The translations under genes were made by a program, and so were the position numbers. Under the pieces are notes generated by a model. That model saw only the letters and a program-made list of their open reading frames with translations. It ran no database searches and was not told where the DNA came from. DNA of 38,806 nt from a bacterium (GTDB taxonomy: Bacteria; Auribacterota; UBA3054): assembly GCA_017554565.1 (NCBI GenBank), contig JAFZID010000110.1:1-38806 (forward strand). Reading direction: 5' to 3'. Position 1 is the stretch's first letter, and each line of letters opens with the position of its first letter. Positions 5,555-33,279 of this stretch are shown here, one piece after another.

Positions 5555-5569
5555 GAAACTGCAGTTGAG

Positions 5570-6178
5570 TTGAAAAGCAAATACACGTTGGAACCATTGG
5601 GAACTGTTTGTGAAATCACTATAGGCGGAACTCCATCCAGAAAGAATCCAAAGTATTTTACAGGGAAAAATTTATGGGTTTCAATAGCAGAAATGCAAGG
5701 GCAAGTAATTACTGACACAAAAGAAAAAATTACAGATAAGGCTATTTTGGATTCTAATGTAAAGCCTATACCTAAAGATACTACATTGTTGAGTTTTAAG
5801 CTTAGTATTGGCAGAGTAGCTATAGCAGGGAAAGAATTGTATACGAACGAGGCAATTGCTGCACTAATCCCAAAAAGTAAGAAAAAAATACTTGATAAAT
5901 ATTTGTATTATTTGTTTAAAAGTAAGCTAATCGATCTTGAAAGTGTCGGTAACAAAGCATTTGGAAAAAGTTTAAATTCAGCGTATCTTCGCGAAGAGGT
6001 TAAGATTCCTGTTCCGCCGATTCCTATTCAAAAGATTATTATTGACGAATGCTCAAAAATAGATAAAGAATTTGAAACAACCCGTATGTCTATTGAAAGC
6101 TATAGGCAAAAAATAGAAAATCTTTTTGAAAAGTTAGATGTTGCTAGCAAGACAGGAGGGCAAACCGAGTCTCTCTGA
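5570..6178 (+). CDS. hsdS: R-M specificity (S) subunit, single target-recognition domain
   Basis: This DNA-recognition subunit partners the preceding nuclease-methyltransferase. The start is TTG, 15 bases after the upstream stop. The 202 residues contain one target-recognition domain (opening LGTVCEITIGGTPSRKNPKYF, with the typical IPVPPIPIQK turn) followed by one coiled-coil spacer helix ending EKLDV. Full type I S subunits have two such halves and about 400 residues, so this is a half-size subunit. DNA just after its stop still encodes recognisable pieces of a second half in other frames, so it is most likely a truncated former two-TRD protein. Half-size S subunits can work as dimers, so it may still be functional. 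Family assignment is firm; activity is not known. Confidence 0.85.
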   Translation: MKSKYTLEPLGTVCEITIGGTPSRKNPKYFTGKNLWVSIAEMQGQVITDTKEKITDKAILDSNVKPIPKDTTLLSFKLSIGRVAIAGKELYTNEAIAALIPKSKKKILDKYLYYLFKSKLIDLESVGNKAFGKSLNSAYLREEVKIPVPPIPIQKIIIDECSKIDKEFETTRMSIESYRQKIENLFEKLDVASKTGGQTESL

Positions 6179-6400
6179 CACATAAAAGTTTAGTGTTTCC
6201 ATCGGGAAGTTTATTCAAGATAAAGAACTTGTTATTAACGGAAAAGCACGTCTATACCGTGCTAATTTTCAGTAACCGATAGGGCAGCTCAAGATAAAGC
6301 GATTGCTAAAATAGAAAAGATTTAAGCAGAGATATTTAAATTAGAAAATCACCTTAAGTCACTTTCTGATAATACAGCCAAAGTTTTCAATATTTTTTAA
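6179..6400 (+). pseudogene. Decayed second TRD of the specificity subunit
   Basis: There is no open reading frame, but short stretches look like S-subunit sequence. From 6186 one frame reads KFSVSIGKFIQDKELVINGK, resembling the opening of a target-recognition domain, before a stop at about 6276. From 6281, in the frame of the intact S subunit, it reads AAQDKAIAKIEKI, then a TAA, then AEIFKLENHLKSLS and NTAKVFNIF to a final stop near 6400. That is the usual C-terminal spacer helix of S subunits. The middle of the TRD is missing. This is best explained by deletion plus frameshift and nonsense mutations. The assignment rests on pattern recognition over short pieces. Confidence 0.65.
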
Positions 6401-6432
6401 CATAACATTTTGTTATTAGGAGCGAACTTCAT

Positions 6433-7170
6433 ATGAAAAAAACAGAAAAGTCGGGGTTCATATATGTTCTAACAAACAAGAGCTTTCACAGAGACAACTG
6501 GATTAAGATTGGATATGCGGAAGACGTGGATAAGCGTGCGAGAGAACTTTCCAACACAGCCTTACCACTTCCATATGAAGTGTATTGCACCTATGAAATC
6601 CCGAGAATACGAGGGAACAAAGATCCGGATAAACTATTGCATAACTTAATCAACAAACTCAATCCCGATCTTCGCATATCTCAAAACAGAGAGTTTTTCG
6701 AAATGTTTCCGTGGGATGCGTATGAGATGCTATTCGCTATAGCACAAATGCATGGCAAAACTGATAAATTGAGACGGAATGAAGAAAATCTTTCTGGGCA
6801 AAATGATCAAAACGATTCTGAATATTCCGTAGAACTATTATTCCCTTCAAATTCAGATAATCGCAATCTCTATGATAAATTTAAAAATGTCATTCTATCT
6901 CTGGACTCATCGCTTGAAGAGACACCAACACAGAATTATGTGGCATTCAAGAAGGGAAAAAGTAATATTGTTTGTTTATGGCCGAAGAGCAACTGGATAG
7001 AGATAGTGTTAAATGCAAAGGTAGGGCAAATTAATGATAAGAATGATATGGTTTATGATATTTCCAACAGAAAATGGTCATCAGAGCAATATGCGTTTAA
7101 ATTCTTTGACGACACAGATGTTGACGCCACAAAGGATTTGATCCAGCAAGTTTTGGACTTAAAGAAATAA
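6433..7170 (+). CDS. GIY-YIG (T5orf172-type) nuclease-like protein with C-terminal DUF5655-like domain
   Basis: The 245-residue protein has two parts. Residues 9-105 match the T5orf172/GIY-YIG fold: FIYVLTN opens the GIY strand, IKIGYAEDVDKRARELS supplies the YIG-like strand and the conserved Arg, and NREFFE carries the expected acidic residue. Residues 145-245 (YDKFKNVILSLDSS ... PKSNWIEIVLNAK ... YDISNRKW ... ATKDLIQQVLDL) resemble DUF5655, a small domain often found at the end of restriction-linked or HEAT-like proteins. The start has a good Shine-Dalgarno (AGGAG, about ten bases upstream). It sits in the same AT-rich island as the R-M genes and ends just before a strong terminator, so it is probably part of the same acquired defence cassette. 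Whether it cleaves DNA is not known. Confidence 0.75.
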   Translation: MKKTEKSGFIYVLTNKSFHRDNWIKIGYAEDVDKRARELSNTALPLPYEVYCTYEIPRIRGNKDPDKLLHNLINKLNPDLRISQNREFFEMFPWDAYEMLFAIAQMHGKTDKLRRNEENLSGQNDQNDSEYSVELLFPSNSDNRNLYDKFKNVILSLDSSLEETPTQNYVAFKKGKSNIVCLWPKSNWIEIVLNAKVGQINDKNDMVYDISNRKWSSEQYAFKFFDDTDVDATKDLIQQVLDLKK

Positions 7171-7206
7171 AACTGCGTATGAGGTAACGAGTTACTACTC
7201 ATAAAC

Positions 7207-7238
7207 AAAAAAGCCCGCGGAACTCCGCGGGCTTTTTT
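7207..7238. terminator. Strong bidirectional terminator closing the AT-rich island
   Basis: A perfect 14-bp stem (arms 7207-7220 and 7225-7238, loop AACT) has six A on the left and six T on the right, so it can act in both directions. It lies between the convergent GIY-YIG gene and the lipoprotein gene. GC-rich DNA resumes right after it. Confidence 0.93.
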
Positions 7239-7259
7239 GTTTCGGCGTTCAAGTGAAAG

Positions 7260-7694
7260 TTATTTCCTTTCCACCTGCGCGCGCTTGTTCATCTGCAAGC
7301 CTCTTTCGGCCAGCGCTTCTTCGCCGCCGATATCGAAGGTGTAGAAGTGGATCATGTCGCGCTTGTTGATGTTGTCCGCGTCCACCACCGCTTCAGGAAT
7401 GCCCCAGACAGCGGAGAAGGGCCAGAACAGCATGTTGACGAAGCCCAGCACAAAGTGCTCGCTGTCGCCGGCGTTGCCGCAGGCCAGATAGAAGTTGCCG
7501 CAACCGGGAAGCAGGTTAAGAAAACCGGCGGCCACGGGGCTGGCGGGTTTTTCCCACAATCCGATCGGATGGTCGATGGTGATGCCCTGGGACTGCAGGC
7601 TTCTGTAAGACTGTTTTTCCTGGATCGAAAGGCCGGAGCAGCCCTGCAGGAAAAGAAGCCCCAACGCCAGCGCGATCAAGAAGTGTTTTTTCAT
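7260..7694 (-). CDS. Conserved small lipoprotein of unknown function
   Basis: The 144-residue protein has a lipoprotein signal peptide with lipobox LQGC (Cys19), so it should be lipidated and membrane-anchored. The mature part has a short hydrophobic Gly/Pro-rich centre (FLNLLPGCGNFYLACG ... FVNMLFWPFSAVWGIPEAV), like small lipoproteins seen in several Gram-negative groups whose function is not established. A good Shine-Dalgarno (AAGGAA) precedes the ATG. The upstream secreted-protein gene ends 23 bases before it, so the two probably share one transcript. No function is proposed. Confidence 0.75.
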   Translation of the reverse strand: MKKHFLIALALGLLFLQGCSGLSIQEKQSYRSLQSQGITIDHPIGLWEKPASPVAAGFLNLLPGCGNFYLACGNAGDSEHFVLGFVNMLFWPFSAVWGIPEAVVDADNINKRDMIHFYTFDIGGEEALAERGLQMNKRAQVERK

Positions 7695-7717
7695 GTTCGT
7701 TCCTTTATTTGTTATTC

Positions 7718-8680
7718 TTATTCTTTCGTGAACCTGAAATAGCAGCCTATGTTGTATTGAGACTTCAAGGTCAGCTTGAACTTGTGGTTCTTCTTGTTGA
7801 GGGAGAACTTAAGAGCAACCTTGGCTCCCTCCACGATCGACGTATTGTCGCAGCAATACTGGTTGCCCTTGTCGATCAAATTAAAGCTCTGACCGCCGTA
7901 CATATCGGGATGCGAGATCCAGCCGTGATAGAAAGACACGGTGCTGTTGTTGAAGGGATCCTTGTCCTGGTTGTAAATATTGCTATTCTTGCCGGAGAAA
8001 GTGTTCTGAACAAGCAGATTCTCGACAAACGGGGAGCCCTCGGAAAATGTTCCCAGGTTGAAATATTTGTTGGCGTAAGTTGGGCCTATCTTGAAAGTCA
8101 GCGTGGTTTTTTTGCGCTTGAAATTCAAACTTACGTCATTGGCTTTAAAATAGGCGTCGGAGCCTTTGGGGATCAGGCAGAAATAGTCGGAAAATATGCT
8201 GCCTTTGCAGCTGATGAAAAATCTGTGCTGACCATCAGCGTCGATCCTTCCCAGCGTCTCGTCCGTCATTACGCCGGCCATCTTAAGCGTGCTCTCCGAT
8301 CCCGACTGATCTATCTTGCAGCCCTTGTTTCCTCCTTTGACTTTGAAGACCATGCCGGTGCCGGCGGCCGGGAAAGCAAAAGGTCCGCCGCCTTCGTAGG
8401 GAGCGTAGCCGCCGGAGGTCCTGCTGTTGAAAATGTAGTATTCGCCCGGTTTCAGTTTTTTGCTCCAGCCGCGGCCGCTGATGTCAGATTCTATTGTGGC
8501 AAGGATCTTGGTGTGGCTGTAATCCTCGCTGATGGAAAACTGGTAGCCCGGGACCGGCAATCCGCTCTCCTCGTCCTGCACTTCTATCAAAAGTTTTCCA
8601 TTGTAATTGATCATGGCGTCGGCGCAAAGAGATCCGAAGGCAGCCAAAAGCCCTAAAAGGAAAAACGTTCTCATCATCAT
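7718..8680 (-). CDS. Secreted protein of unknown function
   Basis: The protein of about 320 residues starts with a hydrophobic signal peptide (TFFLLGLLAAFGSLCADA). I do not recognise its family. The mature part is rich in Gly, aromatic and beta-prone stretches, and the segment at residues 30-75 (LLIEVQDEESGLPVPGYQFSI ... KKLKPGEYYIF) looks like a carboxypeptidase-regulatory-like or SpaA-type beta-sandwich, which is only suggestive. Three ATGs in a row open the frame (8680, 8677, 8674). The GGA of the ribosome site abuts the first, so the third gives the better spacing. An extended -10 promoter lies just upstream. Confidence 0.7.
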   Translation of the reverse strand: MMMRTFFLLGLLAAFGSLCADAMINYNGKLLIEVQDEESGLPVPGYQFSISEDYSHTKILATIESDISGRGWSKKLKPGEYYIFNSRTSGGYAPYEGGGPFAFPAAGTGMVFKVKGGNKGCKIDQSGSESTLKMAGVMTDETLGRIDADGQHRFFISCKGSIFSDYFCLIPKGSDAYFKANDVSLNFKRKKTTLTFKIGPTYANKYFNLGTFSEGSPFVENLLVQNTFSGKNSNIYNQDKDPFNNSTVSFYHGWISHPDMYGGQSFNLIDKGNQYCCDNTSIVEGAKVALKFSLNKKNHKFKLTLKSQYNIGCYFRFTKE

Positions 8681-20653: not shown

Positions 20654-23269
20654 ATGAAAAAAGGCATCCTTTTTCTTCTGGCGGCGCTGGCTGTTTCCGC
20701 GGTTTATGTCTGCGCGGACCCAAGCGTTTTCTTCAAGGAGGATTTTGAAAGCTACAATTCGGGCGATTTTCTGCCGCAGTGCGAAGCGGCGAGCGTCTGG
20801 CAGACCAAATACCAGACGAACTTCGCTTATAAAGTCGAAAGCGACGTCATGGATTCCAAATGCATTACCGTGACGAAGAACGACGCCGATGGCTTCAACT
20901 CCGGCAGTTCCGGCGTCTGGATCCCCACCGGGGCCGAGGAGAGCATGTTCACCGAGACCGGCATCATGAGGATCCGTTTGAAACACCGCTCGCTTAGCAA
21001 CGTCAGCGGCTTCATCTTCGGCAACGGCACCGCCAACGGCCGCGCGCTTTGGGCTTACCGCAACGGCGGCACTTTCTACATCATTCACAGCGACAAAATT
21101 CAGATGCAGTTCGGCGGCATTGGCGGAGACAAGGACAATCAGCTGGAATTCAACATCCAGTATCCCTCCCGCCGCCTTATCAACGTCATAGCCAACGGCA
21201 TTACCAATGTTCCGGCAGATACTATTACTCTTCCCAACTTCAGGATCACGCACATCGGCCCGGCGGTTCTGGCAGGAGGTTACGTGGCCACCGGCAGCGG
21301 CTACGTTACCGCCATCGACGACATTGAGGTCGCCTACGAAGCGCTGACTACGCCCGTCCCCTCCATGCCGACTGATCCCATACTTATCGGCCGCAACGTG
21401 GCCAGCCGCGAATTCGTCATAGCCAACAACGGCGGCGGCGAATTCAATTACACCGTCTCCGCCCTGGGCGATCCGGAATGGCTCACTTTCGCGCCCACCG
21501 GCGTGTGCAAGACCACAAAGAGCCACAAGGTCACTTTCAACCGCAGCGTCATGGGCGACGGTTTCTACCGCACGATCCTGACCTTCGACGCTTCCCCCTA
21601 CGGAAAGTTCGACATCCCTCTGAACATCAGATCCGGCCTGGTCTTCTACTATGAGGATTTCGAGGCGCCCTACTTCCAGGAGGGCGAGCTCCACGGCCAG
21701 CAGAACTGGGTCGGCAAGGTCGAGGACGACGGCTACACTCCCGGAACCAACGAAGCCTATATCAACACGCCCTCCGAGCCCTGGGAAGGACAATGCGCGA
21801 CCTTCGAGAAAGCCGGCGGCTGGGACGGCTACTATTACCCCATCTGGACGCCCTCCAACCTGATCATCAAGGTCTCCTGCAAATTCCGCTGGGACTTTGA
21901 AAACGAAGCCGACCGCTTCTATTTCCGCTCCACCTATTGGCGCAACCCGGCCATCTTCGACCTCTGGTATCACGCCGAGGGCAACGACGTCAGGCTCTGG
22001 GCCTACAACGACACCTCGGGATATCCCCTGGTGGGCGACTACGGTCTGCCCGGCAAGACCTGGCATGATTTCTCCTACACCATGGACTTCAGGATGCAGC
22101 AGCTCACTGAATTCACCTTCGGCGATTTCACCACGAACTTCTCGGAAAAGCCTCTGAGGAAGAAGATGAACGATCTTGTCGATCCCATGTTCTACTATGA
22201 GAAATTCTGCGTGCACGGCGGCGGCGAAGATTCCAGAGTGGGCGTCTCCATCGACAATCTGCTTATAACGGAAGTACAGCGTCCCAAGATCGCCATTCCC
22301 GCTTACGAAAAAGCCGTCTCCATGGGCGGGCTCAACGTTTACACCAATCTTTTGGAAAACGCCGGCGCCCAGAACTACAAGTTCACGGCCGAGGTCCTCG
22401 ACTACGCTGACAATCTGAAGCTCTCCCGCACCACGGGCTCCATCGGCACCAAAGGCATGGTCATCTACAGATTGAACCGCACCGGGTTGAAGGACGGCTA
22501 CTACACCGCCAGGATCAAATACGACTACGTCGCCTCCAACAGCACCAACTCCGGCTCCTTCGTCCAGCTCGTGACCTTCGGCGTGGGCGGCTGGTATTAT
22601 ACGACTGAATTCGAAGGCGAACTCTTCAAGCTCGGCTCCATCAACAATCAGGAATGCTGGAAAGTCGAAAACTTCTACGAAGTCGAGCCTTCCCTTAAGC
22701 TCTTCGACGGCATCCAGTGCCTCTACTTCGACCAGCAGAGCAAAGTGACCGTTTCCGCCGGTGTCCCGGCCGGAAGCCACTATTCCTTCCGCTGCCTGGT
22801 CAACCTGCCGGACAACAACAACACTACCTACCTCAGGTTCTGCCAGAACACCGGCGACGGCTTTCTGCCCTTCTACCTCAGAAGGGACCGCGACACCAAG
22901 GAAGTAGTCTTGGGCTTCAAGCCCGCCGGAGGAGACGGCGTGGAGGAACTTTTGAGGAACAACACGCTTGGCCAGTGGCAGACCTTCTCCTACACCATGG
23001 ATCTCGACGAAGCCAATTCCTGCGTCACGCAGGTAACCTTGGGAGATTATGAAACGAACTTATTGACCGGCGAGATCGTCCTCAACACCGCCTTCGACGG
23101 CCAGCCCGTCACCTCCTTCAACATCGAGGCGGTGAACGACGGTCCGGAAGAGGAAAGAGACACCGGCGCTTACATCAAGAACGTGGTGGTCTGCGACCAC
23201 ACGCTGCCTGAGCCGGCAATCTTCGGGCTCCTTGCCCTGGCCCTGCTCTTTTGGAGCAGAAAAAAATAA
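20654..23269 (+). CDS. Large secreted PEP-CTERM-tailed protein with three repeat units
   Basis: An 871-residue exported protein with an N-terminal signal peptide (GILFLLAALAVSAVYVCA). The C-terminal sorting tail has PEP at 852-854, a hydrophobic helix and a basic end (WSRKK). This tail is known to be processed by exosortase-type enzymes. Three related units start near residues 26, 330 and 647 with an (E)DFE/EFE ... G motif, and the second and third share a YTMD ... (F/L)GD(F/Y)xTN stretch. Each looks like a LamG/jelly-roll beta-sandwich. Units are separated by Ig- or BACON-like segments (EFNYTVSALGDPEWLTF; NYKFTAEVLDYADNLKL). It is probably a surface or matrix protein, perhaps carbohydrate-binding. 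No exosortase gene is in the window. Confidence 0.85.
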   Translation: MKKGILFLLAALAVSAVYVCADPSVFFKEDFESYNSGDFLPQCEAASVWQTKYQTNFAYKVESDVMDSKCITVTKNDADGFNSGSSGVWIPTGAEESMFTETGIMRIRLKHRSLSNVSGFIFGNGTANGRALWAYRNGGTFYIIHSDKIQMQFGGIGGDKDNQLEFNIQYPSRRLINVIANGITNVPADTITLPNFRITHIGPAVLAGGYVATGSGYVTAIDDIEVAYEALTTPVPSMPTDPILIGRNVASREFVIANNGGGEFNYTVSALGDPEWLTFAPTGVCKTTKSHKVTFNRSVMGDGFYRTILTFDASPYGKFDIPLNIRSGLVFYYEDFEAPYFQEGELHGQQNWVGKVEDDGYTPGTNEAYINTPSEPWEGQCATFEKAGGWDGYYYPIWTPSNLIIKVSCKFRWDFENEADRFYFRSTYWRNPAIFDLWYHAEGNDVRLWAYNDTSGYPLVGDYGLPGKTWHDFSYTMDFRMQQLTEFTFGDFTTNFSEKPLRKKMNDLVDPMFYYEKFCVHGGGEDSRVGVSIDNLLITEVQRPKIAIPAYEKAVSMGGLNVYTNLLENAGAQNYKFTAEVLDYADNLKLSRTTGSIGTKGMVIYRLNRTGLKDGYYTARIKYDYVASNSTNSGSFVQLVTFGVGGWYYTTEFEGELFKLGSINNQECWKVENFYEVEPSLKLFDGIQCLYFDQQSKVTVSAGVPAGSHYSFRCLVNLPDNNNTTYLRFCQNTGDGFLPFYLRRDRDTKEVVLGFKPAGGDGVEELLRNNTLGQWQTFSYTMDLDEANSCVTQVTLGDYETNLLTGEIVLNTAFDGQPVTSFNIEAVNDGPEEERDTGAYIKNVVVCDHTLPEPAIFGLLALALLFWSRKK

Positions 23270-23465: not shown

Positions 23466-25007
23466 ATGGATAATTTCAGCGATATCGGGGTGAATCCCCC
23501 GGAACGCGACCTTTTTCAGGTCATGGCGCCGGAACCGCCTTTTCTGGATCTTTTGCCCAGCGGTCAGTGCGCCTTTTTAAGTTCGGAGCGGCGGTGGTAT
23601 TACGCGACCATCCTTTATTTCCTCTTCCTGCGCCGCCAGGCCCATGAAGTGGAGAAATATCACAACGACATCTATGACGCCGTGCAGGTCAGGCTGGAAG
23701 AGGAAGGGCCTTACAGCCAGCAGGCCTTCCGGGCCGACATGGAGCAGCTGCTCATCTGGGGCAACGTGGAGCGCCGCATCGAGCCGAAACGGCTCCAGCA
23801 CATCGCCGACCGCCGGGTGCAGAAATTCCTCTATCGGCTTTCCGACCACACCAGGGCTTTTCTGGAAAGCCTCTCGCTTCTCAAGTCGGTGGAAAGCCTG
23901 AACGCCGTCTCCCTGGATCAGGACCATCTCCTGGACCTGCAGGAACTGGTTGAGAAAATAGGGCTCTGCCTGAGCGCCGGCGACAGTCTGAGCGAATCGG
24001 AACTCAGAAGGCTGGGCAGGAACATTTCCGAACTGGACAACCGCTGCCGTCTGATCTCCAATGAGATCAGCGATTTCGGAGCGAAGATCGCGACTTTCAA
24101 CATCGAGCCCTTCCAGCTGGAGACGCTGCCGGACATCATCGACAGGCTGGCCCGCTACGTGGACCAGTATCTTCAGCGCGTGGCCAATCTGACGCCGCCG
24201 GTTTACAGCGCCCTCTCCCGCTGGAATTCCCAGCAGGGTCTCGCCATTCTGCGCAAAGCCAGGGAAGCCATCATCGCCCACCACGAGAACAACCCGCTGG
24301 CCGGCGCGCTGGCGGAGCAGGACGACCCGGCCGAGCAGATGCTGGCCAGGCTCATCCCCTTCTTCGCGCCGGAGGGCGTCTTCCAGCTTCTCTGCGTCAG
24401 GGTAAACGAGCAGGTCCGGATCCTGATCAGCCGCATCAGGCAGTATCTCGACGACATCAGGCACCGCAACATCAGGATAAGAGTCCTGCGCCGCCGCGTC
24501 CACGAATGCATCACCGCGCCGGATTCCGCCTTCCCGGAGATCCGCTCCTTCATCAGGGAGCTGATGTCCACCGCCCAATTGTTCAACGATTCCGGCAACG
24601 GCACTCCCGACGACCGCGTGCCCCCGCCCAGGCCGAACTACTGGCGCCGCCGGGCCACCAGGCCGGCCTTCGTAAATTCCGCCATCATCGCCAAGACCGG
24701 CTCCGCCGAAGCCTCCAGGGAACTGGAGAAAGCCAAGGCCAGGAGGCTAAGGGACTTCATGCGGCTCAAAGCCTACGCTCACGGCCAGCGCGGCCCCGTT
24801 CATCTCTTCTCGCTGAAAGACATGAACGACATCAGGAACTACATGGACTCCGTCAAGTTCTACAAGATAGGCAGAAAGCACGGCATCCATCTGGGCTATT
24901 CCCTAAAGCAGCCCGACAAGAACGCGCCCCAGGCGGAATTCAAAAACCTCAAGTGGTATTTCTCCTCACCGGACTACATAGTAGATTTCCAGGAAAACAT
25001 AAAGTAA
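23466..25007 (+). CDS. jetA: JetA/MksF-like kleisin subunit of an SMC-like complex
   Basis: A 513-residue, mostly helical protein matching the expected first gene of Wadjet (JetABCD) or MksBEF operons by size, order and general sequence character. The N-terminal part (FLDLLPSGQCAFLSSERRWYYATILYFLFLRRQAHEVEKY) resembles the winged-helix opening of JetA/MksF kleisins. The middle is a long run of amphipathic helices. The C-terminus (SSPDYIVDFQENIK) is probably the part that contacts the ATPase head. Known relatives bridge the two heads of the ATPase. It is followed four bases later by the jetB-like gene. Assignment rests on operon context plus the clearly recognisable third gene; sequence evidence alone is moderate. 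Confidence 0.75.
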   Translation: MDNFSDIGVNPPERDLFQVMAPEPPFLDLLPSGQCAFLSSERRWYYATILYFLFLRRQAHEVEKYHNDIYDAVQVRLEEEGPYSQQAFRADMEQLLIWGNVERRIEPKRLQHIADRRVQKFLYRLSDHTRAFLESLSLLKSVESLNAVSLDQDHLLDLQELVEKIGLCLSAGDSLSESELRRLGRNISELDNRCRLISNEISDFGAKIATFNIEPFQLETLPDIIDRLARYVDQYLQRVANLTPPVYSALSRWNSQQGLAILRKAREAIIAHHENNPLAGALAEQDDPAEQMLARLIPFFAPEGVFQLLCVRVNEQVRILISRIRQYLDDIRHRNIRIRVLRRRVHECITAPDSAFPEIRSFIRELMSTAQLFNDSGNGTPDDRVPPPRPNYWRRRATRPAFVNSAIIAKTGSAEASRELEKAKARRLRDFMRLKAYAHGQRGPVHLFSLKDMNDIRNYMDSVKFYKIGRKHGIHLGYSLKQPDKNAPQAEFKNLKWYFSSPDYIVDFQENIK

Positions 25008-25011
25008 GCCT

Positions 25012-25758
25012 ATGAACGAACAATATTTTGAAAAAGATCAGGAGAACTACTCCGATCAGATCGACCAGCTGAACATCCACAACGTCAGGGCGCTCCTCAA
25101 TGTCCTGACCGAGTCGCCATTCTTCTACCAGACCGACGATCCCGACCTCTTCGCCTACCTGAGGATCAACCAGGAGGCCATCGGCCACTTCTTCGTCCGC
25201 TACTTCGGCTGGGAGCTCTACGTTGACCGGCAGCTGGCCAGAGTCATCAAACCGCAGCTTTACAACAACGCCCTGAAGCCCTCCCAGCGGGATCTCTTCG
25301 ACCTCACCAGGCGCGACGAGTGCTCCGTCTTCATGCTGCTTCTGGAATTCTACGAGAAGCTGCTCCGGGACTTCAACTCCAATTACGACGACGACAAGAG
25401 AATGCGCTTTCTGCTTTCCGACTTCGTGCAGTACTGCTTCAACCGCTTCAAGGAAGAGCTTGAGGACACCGAGAGCAGCGAGCGAGCCATCGTGGAAGCC
25501 TGCCGCACCCTCTTCCCGAAGCTGACGAAATACCGCTTCCTGGAGCAGAAGGAGAAAGCCGAGGCCCAGAAAGACGAGCGGCTGCCGGAGGGCATGTTCG
25601 AGCAGGTCATGTACGAATTCCTCCCGGGCATCCACTGCTACCGTCCGGACGTCCTGACCTTCAGGGAGATCGCCCGCCTCTACGACAAAAACGCCCCTGG
25701 CCTCTCCGAGGAGGAGAAGCTCATGAAGGAAGAAGAAAAAGAACAGGAAAATTTTTAA
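25012..25758 (+). CDS. jetB: JetB/MksE-like subunit of an SMC-like complex
   Basis: A 248-residue acidic protein in the second position of the operon, the right size for JetB/MksE (DUF4194 or DUF6063 class). The segment HNVRALLNVLTESPFFYQTDDPDLFAYL ... FFVRYFGWELYVDRQLARVI has the expected tandem winged-helix look. Relatives bind the kleisin and DNA near the ATPase heads. The C-terminus is strongly acidic and Lys-rich (SEEEKLMKEEEKEQENF). The ATG lies four bases after the jetA stop. Which Wadjet subtype it belongs to cannot be settled by eye. Confidence 0.72.
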   Translation: MNEQYFEKDQENYSDQIDQLNIHNVRALLNVLTESPFFYQTDDPDLFAYLRINQEAIGHFFVRYFGWELYVDRQLARVIKPQLYNNALKPSQRDLFDLTRRDECSVFMLLLEFYEKLLRDFNSNYDDDKRMRFLLSDFVQYCFNRFKEELEDTESSERAIVEACRTLFPKLTKYRFLEQKEKAEAQKDERLPEGMFEQVMYEFLPGIHCYRPDVLTFREIARLYDKNAPGLSEEEKLMKEEEKEQENF

Positions 25759-25781
25759 TCGCCCTTTTTAGGTGAATGATC

Positions 25782-28700
25782 ATGGATAGAAATTACAGTT
25801 GGGAAAACGCCCTAAGCCTGCGCGCCCTGCGCCTCATAAACTTTCACAACTTCGCCGACGAGACCATTAAGATCCACGGAAGCCTTTTCCTGATGGGCAA
25901 CAACGGCACCGGCAAGACCACCATCATAGACGCGGTGCAGCTGGCCCTGACCGGCGGGCAAAGGCTGATGTTCAACGCCGCCACCGTCATCGGAGGCAGA
26001 GCGGAATCCGGACGCAACCTTTCCGGCGTTCTTCTGCAGCACAACTTCGAGACCGGAAAAGTCGGCAGAGCCGGCGGCGCCGTGGGCTACGTGGCGTTGG
26101 AGCTTCTCGATCCCAAGACCCAGTCGCCGGTCACCATCGGCGTGGGCGCCTTTGCGGAAAACCTCGACCAGCGCCCGGAAATGTGGGGCTTCATCGTGGA
26201 CGCTCCCCTCTCCGAGGTCCAGCTCACTGTAAGAGTCAACGACGTGTCGGAAGCGCCCCAGTACCGCCCCGTGGACAAAAAGGAACTGCCTGGCCTCGTG
26301 GGCAAGACCAGAGTCTATGACATCGGGCGCTACCGCACCCAGGTCGCCAACCGCTTCTTCGGCGGCCGCTCCAACTTCGAACGCGTGGCGGATCTTCTGA
26401 AAGCCAGCAAATCCTACAAGGACCTTGTGGTCAAGGCCCGCGACTTCGAAGGCCTCTTCGCCGCCCTTTTGCCCGCCCCCGACCATCAGGTCTTCCAGGA
26501 CATTGAGACCACGCTCCAGAACCTGGAGACCATCGAAAGCGACATCAAGGGCCTGAGAAGGGAAGCCGAACTTTTGGAGGAAGCCAACCAGACCGTGGAC
26601 AAGATCGCCTCCTCCAAAGCCAGGATAGAAGAATGCCGCTACCTCAGGCTGGTCAACTCCCTCAATTTCCTTTCTTCGGAACTTAAGAACCAGGAAAGAG
26701 CCATCGCCGTCAACCGCCAGAACCAAGTTGAAGCCAAAAACAAGCTCGACGACCTCCTGCCCAAACTGGAGCAGTCCCGGACCACCCTGGCGGAAGTCCG
26801 GACCGGCACCGGAGCCAAACTCTGGGAAGAAGCCGAGCGTCTGGAAAAGGAACTGGCCAAAATCAAAGAAGACAGCGTGACCTTCAAGGAAGAGACTGAA
26901 AAAGAACTCGCCAAGCAGACCGCCCTGGAAAAAGACCACGCCAACGCCAACGCGGACGTATTGGACGCCCTGCGCTCCCAGAACGCCTTCATCAAGACCA
27001 TCTCCCTCCCCTCCTGCCCGGACAACGTAAAAGAATTCTACGATCACTTCTCCAAGACCGTCTCCTCTCTGAAAAAAGCCTACAAGAACGCTGAGGAGAC
27101 CGCCAGCTGCGACACCGAGGCTCTGGGCAGATCCCAGAAACTGGCCGTAAGGGCCGCTGACGGCCTTCTGCAGGCCTTAAGGGACGAGAAGCAGCTCCTT
27201 ACCATCCGCCTGAACGATCTGGCCCGTGAAAGCGAGATAAAGGCCTCCGTGCCCATCATGGAAGTCATGCCCAGAATGATGGGCTACCGGGATTTCCTGG
27301 ACAGCCTGAAACGGGAAGATCTGAAAGCCGAGCCCCTCTTCACGCTCCTTGATTTCGCCCCCCAGACCTCGCCGCAGATCATGAACCTCATCGAATCCTT
27401 CCTGGGCGACGAATGGCTCGGCACCATCATTCCCGATGAAGAGGACCAGGAGGAGATCGTGAGGCTGGCCTCCAAAGCCTATCCCGGCATAAGGATCGCC
27501 GACGCCGCGGAACTTTCCAATACCAGGAAGATCAAGGTCAAGGAAAACTCCCTGGCCAAATACCTGAAGACCGCCAACCCGATAGCCAAGCAGTTCGTCG
27601 ATCTCCAGCTGGGCGACATCCAGCTCTGCGACCTGGCCGCCACTCCCGACGGCGACTGGCTCTCCAGGGAAGGCCTGGTCAAATCCGGCCTGGTTTACCG
27701 CTACGTCAAGAGAGAAGCGGAAGGCCTCCTGGGCAAAGCCCGCCGCCAGGCCGCCCAGGAAAAACTCCTCACCGACCAGAAGATCAAGAGCAAAGAGCTC
27801 CAGAGCATAGCCGACGGACTGAAGAAAAAACTCTCCTCCCTCTCGGAGACCATAGAGACCGTCTACAAGATCAAGATGCAGCTGGAAGAGAAAGTCTCCC
27901 CCTGGCTCATAGCCCACCGTCTCACCCAGAGAGCCGCCAGCGAAAAACTCCTCTCCGACATCAAAGAGCGCGTGGAGAAAGCCCAGAGCCAGCAGCAGAG
28001 ATCCCAGCGTCAGATCGCCAGGATCCAGAAGCAGATAAAAGAACTCAGGGAAAACAAAGAGTTCCAGACCACCGGCGACATCCACAAGCAGCTTGACATC
28101 CTGAAGAAACGCCTCAACGACGAAGAGAAGGAAAGAGAGCAGCTCCTGGAGACCATCGCCCGCTACAAGGAAAGAGTCTCCATCCTGGAAAGCCAGAACG
28201 CCAAGACCAGGCTCAATTACAACGAAGCCATCAACCAAGCGGCCGACAAAAAGAAGATCCTGGAAGACCGCCTCTCCGAGGAATACCCCGACCTCGAGAG
28301 CTACCTCAAGGAGACCTACGGCGCCGACACCGTCCAGGAAGGCCGGCTGGCGGAGATCATCAAGATCCAGGAACGCGTCATCAACCGCGAGATAGGCAGC
28401 CTCATCGGCTCCGAAGACGCCCGCGCCAAAGGCGGCCTCATCCATCACGAGCTCCTTTGGACCAAATACGCCTTCACCTACCGCGAAGACGTCAACAAGC
28501 TTACCGACCAGGACGGCAGAGACCTCAAGGACATCACCGTCAAACTGAAAGACCAGCTGGAGCAGCTGGAGAACTCCGTCAACGACAACAGGAGAAAACT
28601 CCTTGAGAAGACCATCCTGGGCGACCTCTCCAACCAGTACACCAGAGACCTCTACCGCCTGAGGGAAAGCCTGGACGCCGTCAACCTCATGCTGGAGGGC

Positions 28701-29573
28701 TTGAGTTTCGGCCGCTCCCAGTACCGCTTCACCCAGAAGATCAAGAATGAGTACCGCCAGGTTTACGGCATCGTGAGAAGAGCCGGCGACATCGACGAGG
28801 AATCCCAGCAGCAGCTCAAAGCTTTCTTCGAGTCCAAGCTTACGGAACTCAGGATCCAGCCCGACGGCTCTCTCCCCGCCTTCCTGGATTACCGCCACTG
28901 GTTCGACTATCAGCTCCACGTCAAAGTCGTCGGAACGGAAGGCGAAGGCATCGAGCTTACCAACGACATCCGCCGCCTCGGTTCCGGCGGCGAGCAGGCC
29001 GTTCCGAACTACCTTCTCATCATGGCCATGAGCGCCCTCCTTTACAACCAGATCGGCGCCAAGATCCGCTTCCTCCTCTTCGACGAAGCCTTCTACGGCA
29101 TCGACGCGGAAAGAAGAGAAGAGCTCCTCCGCTTCGCCAACCGCCTCGGTCTCTCTTTGGTCATCGCCACCCCGGAAATGGACGGCGTCACGGAAGCCAT
29201 GCGGGAGTCCACCACGCTGCTGCTCGAAAAGAACGCCAACAACGAGATCTTCATCGGCAACTTCGTCTGGGAATCCCAGGAAGGCACTCAGATGGACATC
29301 TTCAACCAGGAAGCGAACGAAGAGGAGACCTACACCATCGGCGTGAAAGCCGCTCCCAAAGAGGAGCCCGCTACTGAATCGGAAAAACCTGAAGAGCCCA
29401 AAGAAGAAAAGCCCGCCCCCAAGCAGGCCAAAAAGCCCGCGCCGAAAACCAAAGCCCCCGCAAAAAAAGCGGCAAAAAAACCGACGCCCAAACCGGCGAA
29501 AAAACCGGCCTCCAAAAAGCCCGCGCCCAAAGCGAAAGCTAAACCCAAAGCCAAACCGAAAGGCAAAAAATGA
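25782..29573 (+). CDS. jetC: JetC/MksB-like SMC ATPase with a Lys/Pro/Ala-rich C-terminal tail
   Basis: A large ABC-type ATPase of the SMC/MukB/JetC class. The Walker A motif GNNGTGKTT is near residue 39. Long coiled coils lie at roughly 260-480 and 680-970 and flank a hinge-like region (GYRDFLDSLKRED ... PDGDWLSREGLV). The ABC signature RLGSGGEQ is near 1067 and Walker B FLLFDEA has Asp1101-Glu1102. The start at 25782 is preferred over the ATG at 25776 because AGGTGA then has proper spacing. The last 75 residues or so (from about 1189) are low-complexity Lys, Pro and Ala, like histone H1 tails, and are not usual for this family. Relatives load onto DNA and extrude loops; in Wadjet the JetD nuclease then cuts plasmids. 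No JetD is present here. The stop overlaps the cytidine deaminase start. Confidence 0.88.
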   Translation: MDRNYSWENALSLRALRLINFHNFADETIKIHGSLFLMGNNGTGKTTIIDAVQLALTGGQRLMFNAATVIGGRAESGRNLSGVLLQHNFETGKVGRAGGAVGYVALELLDPKTQSPVTIGVGAFAENLDQRPEMWGFIVDAPLSEVQLTVRVNDVSEAPQYRPVDKKELPGLVGKTRVYDIGRYRTQVANRFFGGRSNFERVADLLKASKSYKDLVVKARDFEGLFAALLPAPDHQVFQDIETTLQNLETIESDIKGLRREAELLEEANQTVDKIASSKARIEECRYLRLVNSLNFLSSELKNQERAIAVNRQNQVEAKNKLDDLLPKLEQSRTTLAEVRTGTGAKLWEEAERLEKELAKIKEDSVTFKEETEKELAKQTALEKDHANANADVLDALRSQNAFIKTISLPSCPDNVKEFYDHFSKTVSSLKKAYKNAEETASCDTEALGRSQKLAVRAADGLLQALRDEKQLLTIRLNDLARESEIKASVPIMEVMPRMMGYRDFLDSLKREDLKAEPLFTLLDFAPQTSPQIMNLIESFLGDEWLGTIIPDEEDQEEIVRLASKAYPGIRIADAAELSNTRKIKVKENSLAKYLKTANPIAKQFVDLQLGDIQLCDLAATPDGDWLSREGLVKSGLVYRYVKREAEGLLGKARRQAAQEKLLTDQKIKSKELQSIADGLKKKLSSLSETIETVYKIKMQLEEKVSPWLIAHRLTQRAASEKLLSDIKERVEKAQSQQQRSQRQIARIQKQIKELRENKEFQTTGDIHKQLDILKKRLNDEEKEREQLLETIARYKERVSILESQNAKTRLNYNEAINQAADKKKILEDRLSEEYPDLESYLKETYGADTVQEGRLAEIIKIQERVINREIGSLIGSEDARAKGGLIHHELLWTKYAFTYREDVNKLTDQDGRDLKDITVKLKDQLEQLENSVNDNRRKLLEKTILGDLSNQYTRDLYRLRESLDAVNLMLEGLSFGRSQYRFTQKIKNEYRQVYGIVRRAGDIDEESQQQLKAFFESKLTELRIQPDGSLPAFLDYRHWFDYQLHVKVVGTEGEGIELTNDIRRLGSGGEQAVPNYLLIMAMSALLYNQIGAKIRFLLFDEAFYGIDAERREELLRFANRLGLSLVIATPEMDGVTEAMRESTTLLLEKNANNEIFIGNFVWESQEGTQMDIFNQEANEEETYTIGVKAAPKEEPATESEKPEEPKEEKPAPKQAKKPAPKTKAPAKKAAKKPTPKPAKKPASKKPAPKAKAKPKAKPKGKK

Positions 29574-29986
29574 TGGACCAAAAGACCGCGCAAGCACTCG
29601 TCAATAAAGCCATAGAAGCCCGGGAAAAGGCCTACGCCCCCTACTCCAAATTCAAAGTGGGCGCCGCCATCCTGACAAATGACGGAACAATTTTCCCGGG
29701 CTGCAACATCGAGAACGCCTCCTACGGCGCCACCATTTGCGCGGAAAGAGTCGCCGTCGCCAACATGGTGTCAAGCGGCCACACCGATCCCACAGCCATA
29801 GCCATCTGCTACAACGAAACCGAATTCGCGCTTCCCTGCGGCATCTGCCGCCAGGTCCTTTCAGAATTCTCTGACCAAAAAGAAGACCTCATCGTCCTCA
29901 TGGCCAAACTGGACGGCACCTACCAGGAGACCACCCTCTCAAACCTTCTCCCCGGCGCCTTCAAACTTGCTGACGGTCAAAAATAA
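29570..29986 (+). CDS. cdd: Cytidine deaminase
   Basis: The enzyme converts cytidine and deoxycytidine to uridine and deoxyuridine in pyrimidine salvage. The 138 residues are those of the small tetrameric zinc form: FKVGAAI, FPGCNIENASYG, the catalytic ICAERVA (Cys57, Glu59) and PCGICRQ (Cys90, Cys93). The ATG at 29570 overlaps the stop of the SMC-like ATPase gene, with a second ATG directly after, so it is translationally coupled to that operon. This may be chance operon packing or a functional tie to the JetABC-like complex. A palindromic terminator follows. Confidence 0.95.
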   Translation: MMDQKTAQALVNKAIEAREKAYAPYSKFKVGAAILTNDGTIFPGCNIENASYGATICAERVAVANMVSSGHTDPTAIAICYNETEFALPCGICRQVLSEFSDQKEDLIVLMAKLDGTYQETTLSNLLPGAFKLADGQK

Positions 29987-30185: not shown

Positions 30186-30560
30186 TCATCTCAGGGATTG
30201 GAGGAAGGACTGGACTTGGGGAAGATTTCTTGCGATCCAGTAAAGGATGGTGACGATCAGGATGACGACGGGGATCGTAACGGAGCGGCGGGCTTTTTGT
30301 GAAAAAGCGAGGATCAGGAGCGTCGGGACCGCCAGGAAAAGAATCGGGTTGTAGCTGAAGGCCGCGATTATTTTTCCGTGCACGAGACTGTGCAGCGCGC
30401 GGGAGGTCCCGCAGCCGGGGCATTCGAAGCCGGTAAGGGCGTGGAAAAAGCAGCGAGGGAAAAACGGGAAGGTGGTCGGATCAATTAAGGAGAAAAAGAT
30501 GATCAGGGCCAGAACGACCAGAACGGCGACGATCCAATTTATTTTCGCTCGTCTTTCCAT
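30186..30560 (-). CDS. DUF2752 membrane protein
   Basis: A 124-residue membrane protein with about three helices and the family signature ALTGFECPGCGTSRALHSL followed by HGKIIAAFSYNP. The paired cysteines in CPGCG suggest metal or thiol chemistry, but the function of DUF2752 is not known. Its start lies inside the end of the PrmA-GNAT gene (22-base overlap), so it is the last gene of the rpe operon. Confidence 0.92.
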   Translation of the reverse strand: MERRAKINWIVAVLVVLALIIFFSLIDPTTFPFFPRCFFHALTGFECPGCGTSRALHSLVHGKIIAAFSYNPILFLAVPTLLILAFSQKARRSVTIPVVILIVTILYWIARNLPQVQSFLQSLR

Positions 30561-31864
30561 ACGTGGCGGTAAAGTCTCGTCATGTGGTCGGAAGTGCTTT
30601 CCTTGACGAAGGTGTAAAACTCCCAGCCGTAGCGCTCATAGAAAGAAGTGTGCTCGGTGGCCAGGTAAAGCGTGTCGCAGCCCTTTGTCTGCATATCCCT
30701 GGCGATGTGGTTTAGGAGCGCGCCCGCCAGACCCTGCTTTCTAAAGGGCTCTTCCACGAAAACAGCGCAGACGTTGGGCGCGAGATCCGGCCTGACGTGA
30801 AAGTCGTTGGGAATGACGCCGGCGCCGGCGATGATCTTTTTCGTTTCCGGGTCTCTTATGACGTACCAGTAATTGTCCCTGGGCTCTTTCATGCTGGCGA
30901 GATAAGCGCTTTTGGGGATGTGCCATTTGTCGCTGAACCAGGAGGCCGCTTCTTCCATTTCCGGTTCCGTTTGCGGAACGGTCTCTATAGGTCTCGGTGT
31001 TATTGGGATCTTGAAGACGCCTGTTCTCCAGCCTTCGATGAGCGTCGATTTTTGCTCTATGGCGCCAAGGCGAGTGAAAAGAATTGAAAGCGCGGGATAC
31101 TGCTCGTCCAGGATGCCGGCCAAAACCAAGTATCCTCCCGGCGCCACGGCGGCCAAAAGACGCTCTACGTTGCGTTCTAAGACGGCGCAGAGAATGTTGG
31201 CGATAACTATATCGTATTTCCTTTCAGGGGCGTAAAAAAAGAGGTCCTGCTGAAAAACGGAGATCTTGTCTGCCACCTGGTTTTTTTCAGCGTTCTCTTT
31301 GGCGGCCATGACGGCCTGGGGCTCGTTGTCGAAGGCGTCTATCTCTTTGATGCCCAGTTTCGCTCCGGCCACGGCCAAGATGCCCGTGCCGGTGCCGGCG
31401 TCCAGAAGGCTGGCGGGCTTGCTTTGGTTCGTGAGTTCCTCTAAGAATTCCAAACAGGCTTTGCTGGTGCCGTGGCTGCCCGTGCCGAAGGCCATGCCGG
31501 GATCGTTCACTAGGATGATGTCGTTTGGTTCGGGAGAATAAGTTTCCCAGGAGGGCACGATGACAAGATTCTTTCCTATTCTGCTGACGTGGAAATTCTC
31601 TTTCCACTTCTCCGCCCAGTCTTCTTTCTTGACGGTCCTTTTTTCCAGGGAAAAATCAGAGGTCAGAAGTTTCGCGGTTTCCAGAAGTTTTCTTTCGGCG
31701 GTATCTGCTTCATCTTCGCTTTTCAAAAAAAGGCTGAAGACCGCCTTTTCGGAATCCGTGAGCTTTTCCACGGAAAGATCGGCTTCGAGATCGTCCCAAA
31801 GCTCCGCGAGCTGCTCGCAGACGATCGGTTCGGCGCTAAGGCGTAATTCGATGAGATCAGCCAT
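30539..31864 (-). CDS. prmA: Ribosomal protein L11 methyltransferase fused to a GNAT acetyltransferase
   Basis: A two-domain protein of 441 residues. Residues 1-288 are PrmA-like: an N-terminal substrate-binding region, the signature DPGMAFGTGSH (121-131), the SAM loop LLDAGTGTG (153-161) and IANIL (221-225). PrmA methylates ribosomal protein L11. Residues 295-441 are a GNAT N-acetyltransferase with the acetyl-CoA loop FRKQGLAGALL (374-384) and the C-terminal FYERYGWEFYT motif. Stand-alone PrmA has about 290 residues, so the second domain is an extra. The ATG at 31864 overlaps the upstream mutase stop (TGATG). The fusion may couple two modifications of a ribosomal protein; that is inference. 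Confidence 0.9.
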   Translation of the reverse strand: MADLIELRLSAEPIVCEQLAELWDDLEADLSVEKLTDSEKAVFSLFLKSEDEADTAERKLLETAKLLTSDFSLEKRTVKKEDWAEKWKENFHVSRIGKNLVIVPSWETYSPEPNDIILVNDPGMAFGTGSHGTSKACLEFLEELTNQSKPASLLDAGTGTGILAVAGAKLGIKEIDAFDNEPQAVMAAKENAEKNQVADKISVFQQDLFFYAPERKYDIVIANILCAVLERNVERLLAAVAPGGYLVLAGILDEQYPALSILFTRLGAIEQKSTLIEGWRTGVFKIPITPRPIETVPQTEPEMEEAASWFSDKWHIPKSAYLASMKEPRDNYWYVIRDPETKKIIAGAGVIPNDFHVRPDLAPNVCAVFVEEPFRKQGLAGALLNHIARDMQTKGCDTLYLATEHTSFYERYGWEFYTFVKESTSDHMTRLYRHVWKDERK

Positions 31865-33279
31865 CACTTCAGAAGGGCGGCGCCGAATTCCGTCATCTTT
31901 TCGGCTTCAGGAAGGGTGGGCGCTTCCGCGTAGAAGCGGCAGACCGGCTCGGTGCCGGAGAATCTCAATAGGAGCCAGGAGTCGTCCTCCAACTCGAATT
32001 TGACGCCGTCGATTGTTTTGATGTTGACGACCTTGCGGCCGAGGATCTCAGAGGGAGGCTCCGTCTCGAGTTTTTTCATGAAAGCGTCCTTGGCGTTGGG
32101 GTCGCACTCTTTGTCGATCCTGTGGTAGCGCAATTTCCCAAATTCTTTGTCGATGTAGGCAACGGCTTCGCCGGCGTTATTGAAGCCCAGGCCTATCAAG
32201 GCCTCTGTGAAGAGAAGGCCGGACAATACGCCGTCCCTTTCGGGGATGTGCTTCTGGTAGCCTAAGCCGCCGCTCTCTTCGGTGCCCACCAGGGCGCTGC
32301 CGTCAAGAAGATACGGCACGATATATTTGAAGCCAATGGGCTTTTCTTCCAGGGGAATATTGTATTTCTCGCAGAAGCGGTCGATGGTCTTGGAGCAGGA
32401 GACGGTTTTGATCATTTTGCCGGACCATCCTTTGCACTTCATAAAATAAAGCGCAAGAAGGAGCGCGATCTTGGGAGTGATGATGTACTCTCCCCTATTG
32501 TCCGCGGCCGCCAGGCGGTCGGCGTCGCCGTCCGTGACCAGACAGACGTCGAAGCCGTCTTTCACCGTTTTCGCGAGGCTCGCGGCCATGTTTTGGGGAA
32601 CGGGCTCGGGAGCGATGCCGGGGAAGGCGGGGTTGCGGTCAGATCTTATCGTGACAGCCTCGTGGCCGTATTTCGACAAGATGTCGGAGATATAAGTCTT
32701 GCCGACACCGTAGAGAGAATCCACGAGAACTTTTAATTTTTTCGTTCTGAGAAGATCCTTGTCCAGGAAATTCTCCACCCATTCCAGGTAGACTTTTTCC
32801 GGATCGCCCGCGAGGACCAAACCTTTTTTCTCAGCTTCTTCTTTCGTTATTCTTTGGGGCGGATTCTTACCTACTTGGGCTTCGATGCCCTTGGTGGTGG
32901 CGACGTCCGCGGAGCAGCCAGGGGGAAGCTTGATCTTGAAGCCGCTGTAGTTGGCGGGATTGTGGCTGGCGGTTATCATGACGCCGCCCGCCAGATCGTA
33001 ATGTTTTACGGTATAGGAAACAGCCGGAGTCGGCAGAGGCTTGTCTGAGAGCAGAACTTTGAAACCGTTGGCCCAGAAGATCTCGGAAACCAGCGCGGCG
33101 AAACGCTTCCCCAGGAAGCGGTGGTCGTAGCCGACGACAAGGGATGCTCCGGCTTGGCCTTCCGCTTTGAGATAATCGGCGTAGGCCTGGGCCGCCAGGG
33201 AAAGATTCTCGAAGGTAAAGGTGTCGGCTATTACGCCTCGCCAGCCGTCGGTGCCGAATTTTATAATGTGCTCAGACAT
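31864..33279 (-). CDS. Phosphoglucomutase/phosphomannomutase family protein
   Basis: An alpha-D-phosphohexomutase of 471 residues that moves phosphate between C1 and C6 of a hexose via a phosphoserine. FGTDGWRG lies at 8-15, the active-site serine is Ser105 in TASHNP, the Mg2+ loop is DGDADR, the sugar-binding loop GTEESGGLGY, and the phosphate-binding loop RFSGTEP. Whether it acts on glucose, mannose or glucosamine phosphate is not clear; the sugar loop suggests a glucose/mannose type rather than GlmM. It starts directly after rpe (stop and start separated by one base) and overlaps prmA. Confidence 0.93.
   Translation of the reverse strand: MSEHIIKFGTDGWRGVIADTFTFENLSLAAQAYADYLKAEGQAGASLVVGYDHRFLGKRFAALVSEIFWANGFKVLLSDKPLPTPAVSYTVKHYDLAGGVMITASHNPANYSGFKIKLPPGCSADVATTKGIEAQVGKNPPQRITKEEAEKKGLVLAGDPEKVYLEWVENFLDKDLLRTKKLKVLVDSLYGVGKTYISDILSKYGHEAVTIRSDRNPAFPGIAPEPVPQNMAASLAKTVKDGFDVCLVTDGDADRLAAADNRGEYIITPKIALLLALYFMKCKGWSGKMIKTVSCSKTIDRFCEKYNIPLEEKPIGFKYIVPYLLDGSALVGTEESGGLGYQKHIPERDGVLSGLLFTEALIGLGFNNAGEAVAYIDKEFGKLRYHRIDKECDPNAKDAFMKKLETEPPSEILGRKVVNIKTIDGVKFELEDDSWLLLRFSGTEPVCRFYAEAPTLPEAEKMTEFGAALLK

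What the first reader, a model, noticed from the sequence alone, without database searches (positions are those of the whole stretch)
29346..29573. Histone H1-like tail on an SMC ATPase
After the ATPase head the protein ends in about 75 residues made almost only of Lys, Pro and Ala with some Glu at first, including repeated AKKP/PAPK-like units. SMC, MukB and JetC proteins normally end soon after the head. Such a tail should bind DNA without sequence preference and could load or anchor the complex, or stand in for a missing partner.
Basis: partly seen in the sequence, partly recalled or inferred. Interest (0 to 1): 0.75.

Follow-up and report, generated by a model that had tools for sequence, protein, structure and literature searches.

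The report
Basic-tailed Wadjet-like condensin without nuclease
A rumen bacterium carries a DNA-looping machine of the kind known from anti-plasmid defence, but without its cutting enzyme and in place of the usual chromosome-organising and partition proteins, and in this one genus its motor protein has gained a histone H1-like, lysine-rich tail that probably holds it on DNA.

Summary
The tail is real. It is about 75 residues of Lys/Pro/Ala after a Glu/Pro stretch, ending a 1265-aa JetC-like SMC ATPase. All six complete orthologues of the genus carry it, with varying length and sequence, so it is no frameshift. All four C-termini seen in other families of the same class end soon after the head, so it is a genus-level addition. 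Its last 50 residues are the most K/P/A-rich and most positive of about 1,500 proteins in a sister genome. Similar tracts sit on that genome's RpoD, TopA, RsfS and IF-2. Lys-rich tails on bacterial DNA-binding proteins (TopA, HupB) are known, and there they hold the protein on DNA.

The larger finding is the complex itself. jetA-jetB-jetC resembles Wadjet type II but no jetD was found. JetC is single-copy in 14 of 15 genomes of the class, under strong purifying selection. All 15 lack canonical SMC, ScpA and ParB, which most other classes of the phylum keep. Best reading: a nuclease-less Wadjet-type complex has become the chromosomal condensin, as MukBEF did in enterobacteria. The tail likely adds non-specific DNA affinity. 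The condensin role is inferred from genomes, the tail's function from analogy.

The parts
23466..25007 (+). jetA: kleisin-like subunit, 513 aa, DUF2397 / JetA2
   Evidence: Pfam DUF2397 61.6 bits (cut-off 28.5); PADLOC JetA2 E=4e-14; AlphaFold model (pLDDT 64) best PDB matches Wadjet-II JetABC 9qe0 (E=1.9e-7) and MukF
25012..25758 (+). jetB: KITE-like subunit, 248 aa, DUF2398 / JetB2
   Evidence: Pfam DUF2398 31.6 bits (cut-off 26.9); PADLOC JetB2 E=1e-9; structure model too poor to use (pLDDT 45)
25776..29573 (+). jetC: SMC-like ATPase, 1265 aa, with C-terminal tail
   Evidence: PADLOC JetC1 E=1e-68 and JetC2 E=7e-41; Pfam SbcC_Walker_B and AAA_29 over cut-off; one copy per genus genome
25896..25919 (+). 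Walker A GNNGTGKT (residues 41-48)
   Evidence: invariant in nine sequences from three families of the class
27258..27740 (+). probable hinge, about residues 495-655 (limits approximate)
   Evidence: inference: Pro/Gly- and aromatic-containing stretch between two coil-like arms
28974..29093 (+). ABC signature RLGSGGEQ (28974-28997) and Walker B FLLFDEAF (29070-29093)
   Evidence: catalytic residues invariant in the alignment
29346..29408 (+). tail, first part: Glu/Pro-rich spacer of variable length (residues 1191-1211)
   Evidence: becomes EP repeats in some genus members
29409..29570 (+). tail, second part: Lys/Pro/Ala block (residues 1212-1265)
   Evidence: 43-47 of the last 50 residues are K/P/A and net charge is +19 to +22 in six species; absent in other families
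29560..29986 (+). AAGG (29560-29563) inside the tail's last codons, as likely ribosome-binding site of the overlapping cytidine deaminase gene (ATG 29570 or 29573, stop 29986)
   Evidence: AAAGGC plus A-run conserved in all six species, ATG overlapping or just after the jetC stop; NCBIfam cytidine deaminase

Best explanation
jetABC encodes a MukBEF-type loop-extruding complex related to Wadjet type II that has lost the nuclease subunit JetD and serves as the chromosomal condensin of this bacterial class, in place of Smc-ScpAB. Shown from sequence: subunit identity, an intact ATPase, no JetD found, class-wide conservation, and joint absence of SMC, ScpA and ParB. Inferred: that it folds and segregates the chromosome. 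In this genus JetC gained a (by composition) disordered tail with an acidic, proline-rich spacer and then a K/P/A block. As with the lysine tails of actinobacterial TopA and HupB, the block most likely binds DNA without sequence preference through charge. It would keep the head module close to DNA between ATPase cycles, helping loading and residence in cells that have no ParB to load a condensin. The tail is an auxiliary gain, not an essential part, because sister families do without it.
For: Tail in 6/6 complete genus orthologues, absent at four C-termini in other families; highest K/P/A content and charge in the sister genome's proteome. JetA, JetB and JetC match Wadjet families; JetA model matches Wadjet-II JetA and MukF. 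JetC in 14/15 class genomes and 0/29 others of the phylum; operon order kept in every family where the region was read. Core dN/dS about 0.05-0.15. SMC, ScpA and ParB all missing in 15/15 class genomes, while 26, 24 and 26 of 29 others have them; chance that incompleteness alone hides one gene in all 15 is about 7e-13. JetD: Pfam JetD_C 0/44, with C. glutamicum as positive control; four JetD references find nothing in G003. The four annotated plasmid relatives all carry JetD directly after JetC. Analogies: PMC7398561, PMC5676037; MukBEF replacement: PMC10586767.
Against: No experiment. The tail sequence evolves several times faster than the core, so only its composition is constrained, and relaxed drift of low-complexity sequence is possible. 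Similar tracts on four other proteins of the genome hint at a genus-wide tendency. The Pfam test for type II JetD (DUF2399) had no ringing control, so that absence rests on JetD_C, on phmmer/tblastn with two type II JetD proteins in G003, and on gene neighbourhood. The genomes are metagenome-assembled, 64-93% complete.
Confidence: 0.6

Rival explanations
1. The tail is a near-neutral low-complexity extension, grown by repeat slippage and tolerated, its end held in place by the ribosome-binding site of the downstream cytidine deaminase gene.
For: Length varies (73-103 residues after the DIF motif) and the sequence changes rapidly; internal direct repeats and a short DNA match to the RpoD tract; conserved AAAGGC before the next ATG; K/P/A tracts on other proteins of the genome.
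Against: Composition and charge stay almost constant (+19 to +22) across species whose proteins differ by up to 14% while the tail sequence drifts; tail dN/dS stays below 1 in every pair; the other tracts are on nucleic-acid-related proteins.
Confidence: 0.25
2. The system is still anti-plasmid or anti-phage defence, a Wadjet whose JetD is replaced by an unlinked or unrecognised nuclease.
For: Subunits match Wadjet models; a YhcG nuclease gene lies between jetB and jetC in one relative.
Against: Single copy, conserved through the class with kept genus synteny, unlike patchy defence genes; no conserved extra gene in the operon; the class would then have no recognisable condensin at all.
Confidence: 0.15
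3. The tail serves something other than DNA: RNA or ribosome association, binding to the cell periphery, or head-to-tail autoinhibition between its Glu-rich and Lys-rich halves.
For: RsfS and IF-2, both ribosome-associated, carry similar tracts; the tail contains both acidic and basic blocks. In C. glutamicum the related MksB sits at cell poles (PMC10123090).
Against: RpoD and TopA, both DNA-acting, carry the most extreme K/P/A tracts besides JetC; JetC is a DNA motor, so DNA is the nearest polyanion.
Confidence: 0.15

Closest known systems
Wadjet type II (JetA2-JetB2-JetC2-JetD2; DUF2397, DUF2398, TIGR02680, DUF2399)
   Same: Gene order A-B-C; JetA and JetB fall in DUF2397 and DUF2398; JetA model resembles Neobacillus vireti Wadjet-II JetA
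   Different: No JetD; JetC scores best against type I models; JetB is shorter (248 aa against 412-474 in the plasmid references); class-wide single-copy conservation; genus members have a basic JetC tail
MukBEF / MksBEF condensins
   Same: Three subunits (SMC, kleisin, KITE) without nuclease; MukBEF replaced Smc-ScpAB (PMC10586767); JetA model also matches MukF
   Different: Sequence families are Wadjet-like, not MukB/E/F; different lineage; role not shown by experiment here
Lysine-repeat tails of actinobacterial TopA and HupB (PAKK/KAAK motifs)
   Same: C-terminal Lys/Ala/Pro units compared to histone H1; in those proteins needed for processivity or stable nucleoid binding
   Different: Here on an SMC-type ATPase, after a Glu/Pro spacer; function not measured

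Membership tests
Wadjet type II | JetA2 (DUF2397) and JetB2 (DUF2398) next to an SMC-like JetC | tested here: met
   both Pfam families over cut-off; JetC by PADLOC
Wadjet type II | JetD nuclease in the operon | tested here: not met
   No JetD beside jetABC in the window or the read relatives; JetD_C 0/44 with ringing control; DUF2399 0/44 but no control rang; JetD references negative in G003
MukBEF-type condensin | SMC ATPase with Walker A, signature and Walker B, plus kleisin and KITE subunits, no nuclease | tested here: met
   the KITE assignment rests on JetB family matches only
MukBEF-type condensin | Sole condensin: canonical SMC and ScpA absent | tested here: met
   15/15 class genomes lack both
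MukBEF-type condensin | Organises or segregates the chromosome | not testable with these tools
   needs Hi-C or depletion
Histone H1 / HC1-HC2 proteins | Homology to an H1 or HC family model | tested here: not met
   tail alone: no Pfam histone or HC2 match at E up to 5; only the TopA tail of the sister genome hits HC2, below cut-off
Lys-rich DNA-binding tails (TopA, HupB type) | Extreme K/P/A composition and positive charge on a DNA-acting protein | tested here: met
Lys-rich DNA-binding tails (TopA, HupB type) | Tail raises DNA affinity or processivity | not testable with these tools
   needs purified full-length and tail-less protein

The most novel reading that the evidence does not exclude
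A whole bacterial class has lost Smc-ScpAB and ParB and runs its chromosome with a nuclease-less Wadjet-II-like JetABC, a defence-type loop extruder in a housekeeping role, in which one gut genus fitted the motor with an H1-like DNA tether that may substitute for ParB-guided loading.
Probability: 0.55. Interest if true: 0.8.

Novelty: new variant of a known kind. Interest (0 to 1): 0.62.

Why it matters
Wadjet and MukBEF share a motor but have opposite outcomes, cutting plasmids or folding chromosomes. A lineage in which a Wadjet-II-like JetABC stands alone, without JetD, SMC, ScpA or ParB, is a natural test of how a loop extruder moves between defence and housekeeping. The tailed and tail-less JetC orthologues offer a ready comparison of what a non-specific DNA tether does to an SMC motor.

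Tried and rejected
Frameshift or error: rejected, the tail is open in six species. Tail from a histone gene: no match; DNA similarity to the RpoD tract is 40 nt at 82%, within what composition could give. Tail compensating for missing HU: two HU-family genes found. Mobile or viral origin of jetC: no viral contigs relative, and plasmid relatives are distant, at most 30% identity over part of the head. JetB structure: model too poor and fold search uninformative. PDB sequence searches gave nothing for JetA and JetB and only weak Rad50/PtuA ATPase matches for JetC. The phylum could not be named; relatives are deposited only as 'Bacterium isolate RGIG...' from ruminant gut samples. The Streptomyces TopA lysine-repeat primary paper was not held, so its review PMC7398561 is cited.

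Full report
OBSERVATION. The open reading frame 25776-29573 (+) encodes 1265 residues, and from residue 1191 (29346) to the stop it is a Glu/Pro-rich stretch followed by a Lys/Pro/Ala block. Of the last 50 residues 45 are K, P or A, with net charge +22. In the sister genome G003, fetched in full (10 contigs, 2.07 Mb), the orthologous tail ranks first of 1,520 proteins both in K/P/A content and in positive charge.

CONSERVATION OF THE TAIL. The whole-genome search found jetC in 8 of 8 genomes of the genus. The six with a complete 3' end all carry the tail, with 73-103 residues after the conserved DIF motif; the other two stop at contig ends. The letters change quickly, but composition and charge do not (43-47 K/P/A in the last 50 residues, net +19 to +22). 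In other families of the same order the protein ends 15-18 residues after DIF (L017-L019), and a fourth, separately assembled C-terminus also ends close to the head (L023), so the tail is an acquisition of this genus. Pairwise dN in the tail is about 2 to 17 times that of the core, with dN/dS still below 1 in every pair; alignments of such sequence are uncertain, so these numbers are rough. The final KPKGKK is nearly invariant, and its DNA (AAAGGC plus an A-run) lies just before the start codon of the following cytidine deaminase gene in all six species, which probably explains that part of the conservation.

WHAT THE PROTEIN IS. PADLOC calls it JetC (JetC1 E=1e-68, JetC2 E=7e-41). The two genes upstream are JetA-like (DUF2397, 61.6 bits against a cut-off of 28.5) and JetB-like (DUF2398, 31.6 against 26.9). 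An AlphaFold model of JetA built from 11 class sequences (mean pLDDT 64, moderate) finds the Neobacillus vireti Wadjet-II JetABC structure first (9qe0, E=1.9e-7) and then MukF. The JetB model was too poor to use. Walker A, signature and Walker B residues of JetC are invariant, and core dN/dS is about 0.05-0.15, so the ATPase is under purifying selection.

NO NUCLEASE. The gene after jetC in the genus is cytidine deaminase, and no JetD-like gene lies next to the operon in the relatives read. The JetD_C family is absent from all 44 genomes of the phylum, while the control Corynebacterium glutamicum rings. DUF2399 is also absent, but no control genome rang for it. Two type II and two type I JetD proteins from plasmids find nothing in G003, although they find each other within each type. 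In the four annotated plasmid relatives JetD directly follows JetC.

NO OTHER CONDENSIN. All 15 genomes of the class lack canonical SMC: TIGR02168 gives at most 46 bits, apart from the head mostly over coiled-coil positions, whereas 26 of 29 genomes of other classes have clear SMC hits. They also lack ScpA (0/15 against 24/29) and ParB (0/15 against 26/29). If one gene were hidden only by incompleteness, the chance of missing it in all 15 is about 7e-13. A six-frame motif scan of G003 finds, among frames of 480 aa or more with Walker A and signature, only UvrA-like, ABC-F-like and RecN-like proteins (named by me from their motifs and length) and JetC, and the only ParA-type Walker motif is in an Mrp-like protein. 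jetC is present in 14 of the 15, with the operon order A-B-C in each family where the region was read. G013 lacks a hit, but that genome is only 80% complete.

MECHANISM. Shown: subunits, intact ATPase, joint absence of JetD, SMC, ScpA and ParB. Inferred: that JetABC folds the chromosome by loop extrusion, as MukBEF does; MukBEF itself is described as having replaced Smc-ScpAB in enterobacteria (PMC10586767). For the tail the best analogy is the lysine repeats of actinobacterial TopA, which confer high processivity and have been likened to histone H1 (PMC7398561), and the PAKK/KAAK tail of HupB, which is needed for nucleoid binding (PMC5676037). An acidic, proline-rich spacer followed by a basic block fits a flexible tether that holds DNA near the heads. 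In G003 K/P/A tracts also occur on RpoD (a long N-terminal tract), TopA, RsfS and IF-2. The tail is thus part of a habit of this genome on nucleic-acid-related proteins, which supports a polyanion-binding role but also leaves room for a low-complexity drift explanation.

MEMBERSHIP. The complex passes the subunit tests of Wadjet II but fails the JetD test, so I do not file it as a Wadjet defence system. It meets the sequence features of a MukBEF-like condensin, while the functional test is open. The tail works like an H1 or Lys-repeat tail by composition but is not homologous to H1 or HC families by the models used.

VERDICT. The tail alone is a new instance of a known kind of appendage on a new kind of protein. 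The surprising part is the host complex: a nuclease-less, Wadjet-II-like JetABC as apparent sole condensin of a bacterial class. Searches of an open-access paper library turned up no earlier report of this, which is not proof of novelty.

Noticed in passing
L152:9005-11830 (sister genome G003, contig C10): The primary sigma factor RpoD (942 aa) begins with a very long K/P/A tract made of PAPKK/PAKK/APAKK units, spanning at least the first 300 residues as printed.
   Followed up: partly
G017, G018, G019 (another family of the phylum): These 91-98% complete genomes also lack SMC and ScpA, keep ParB, and have no JetC of this clade; their condensin is unknown.
   Followed up: no
L166:4078-4638 (-) and L169:5942-6436 (+): A YhcG/DUF1016 nuclease gene and an ORF6N gene sit between jetB and jetC in two relatives; not conserved.
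   Followed up: partly
window 2930-8000: GC falls to 35% over an N6-methylase/Eco57I gene, followed by a T5orf172/DUF5655 gene: a probable acquired restriction-modification island.
   Followed up: no
window 30539-31867 (-): Fusion of a PrmA-type ribosomal protein L11 methyltransferase with a GNAT acetyltransferase domain, conserved in the genus.
   Followed up: no
window 20654-23269 (+): An 871-aa protein without any Pfam match lies upstream of jetA; its orientation is inverted in some genus members.
   Followed up: no
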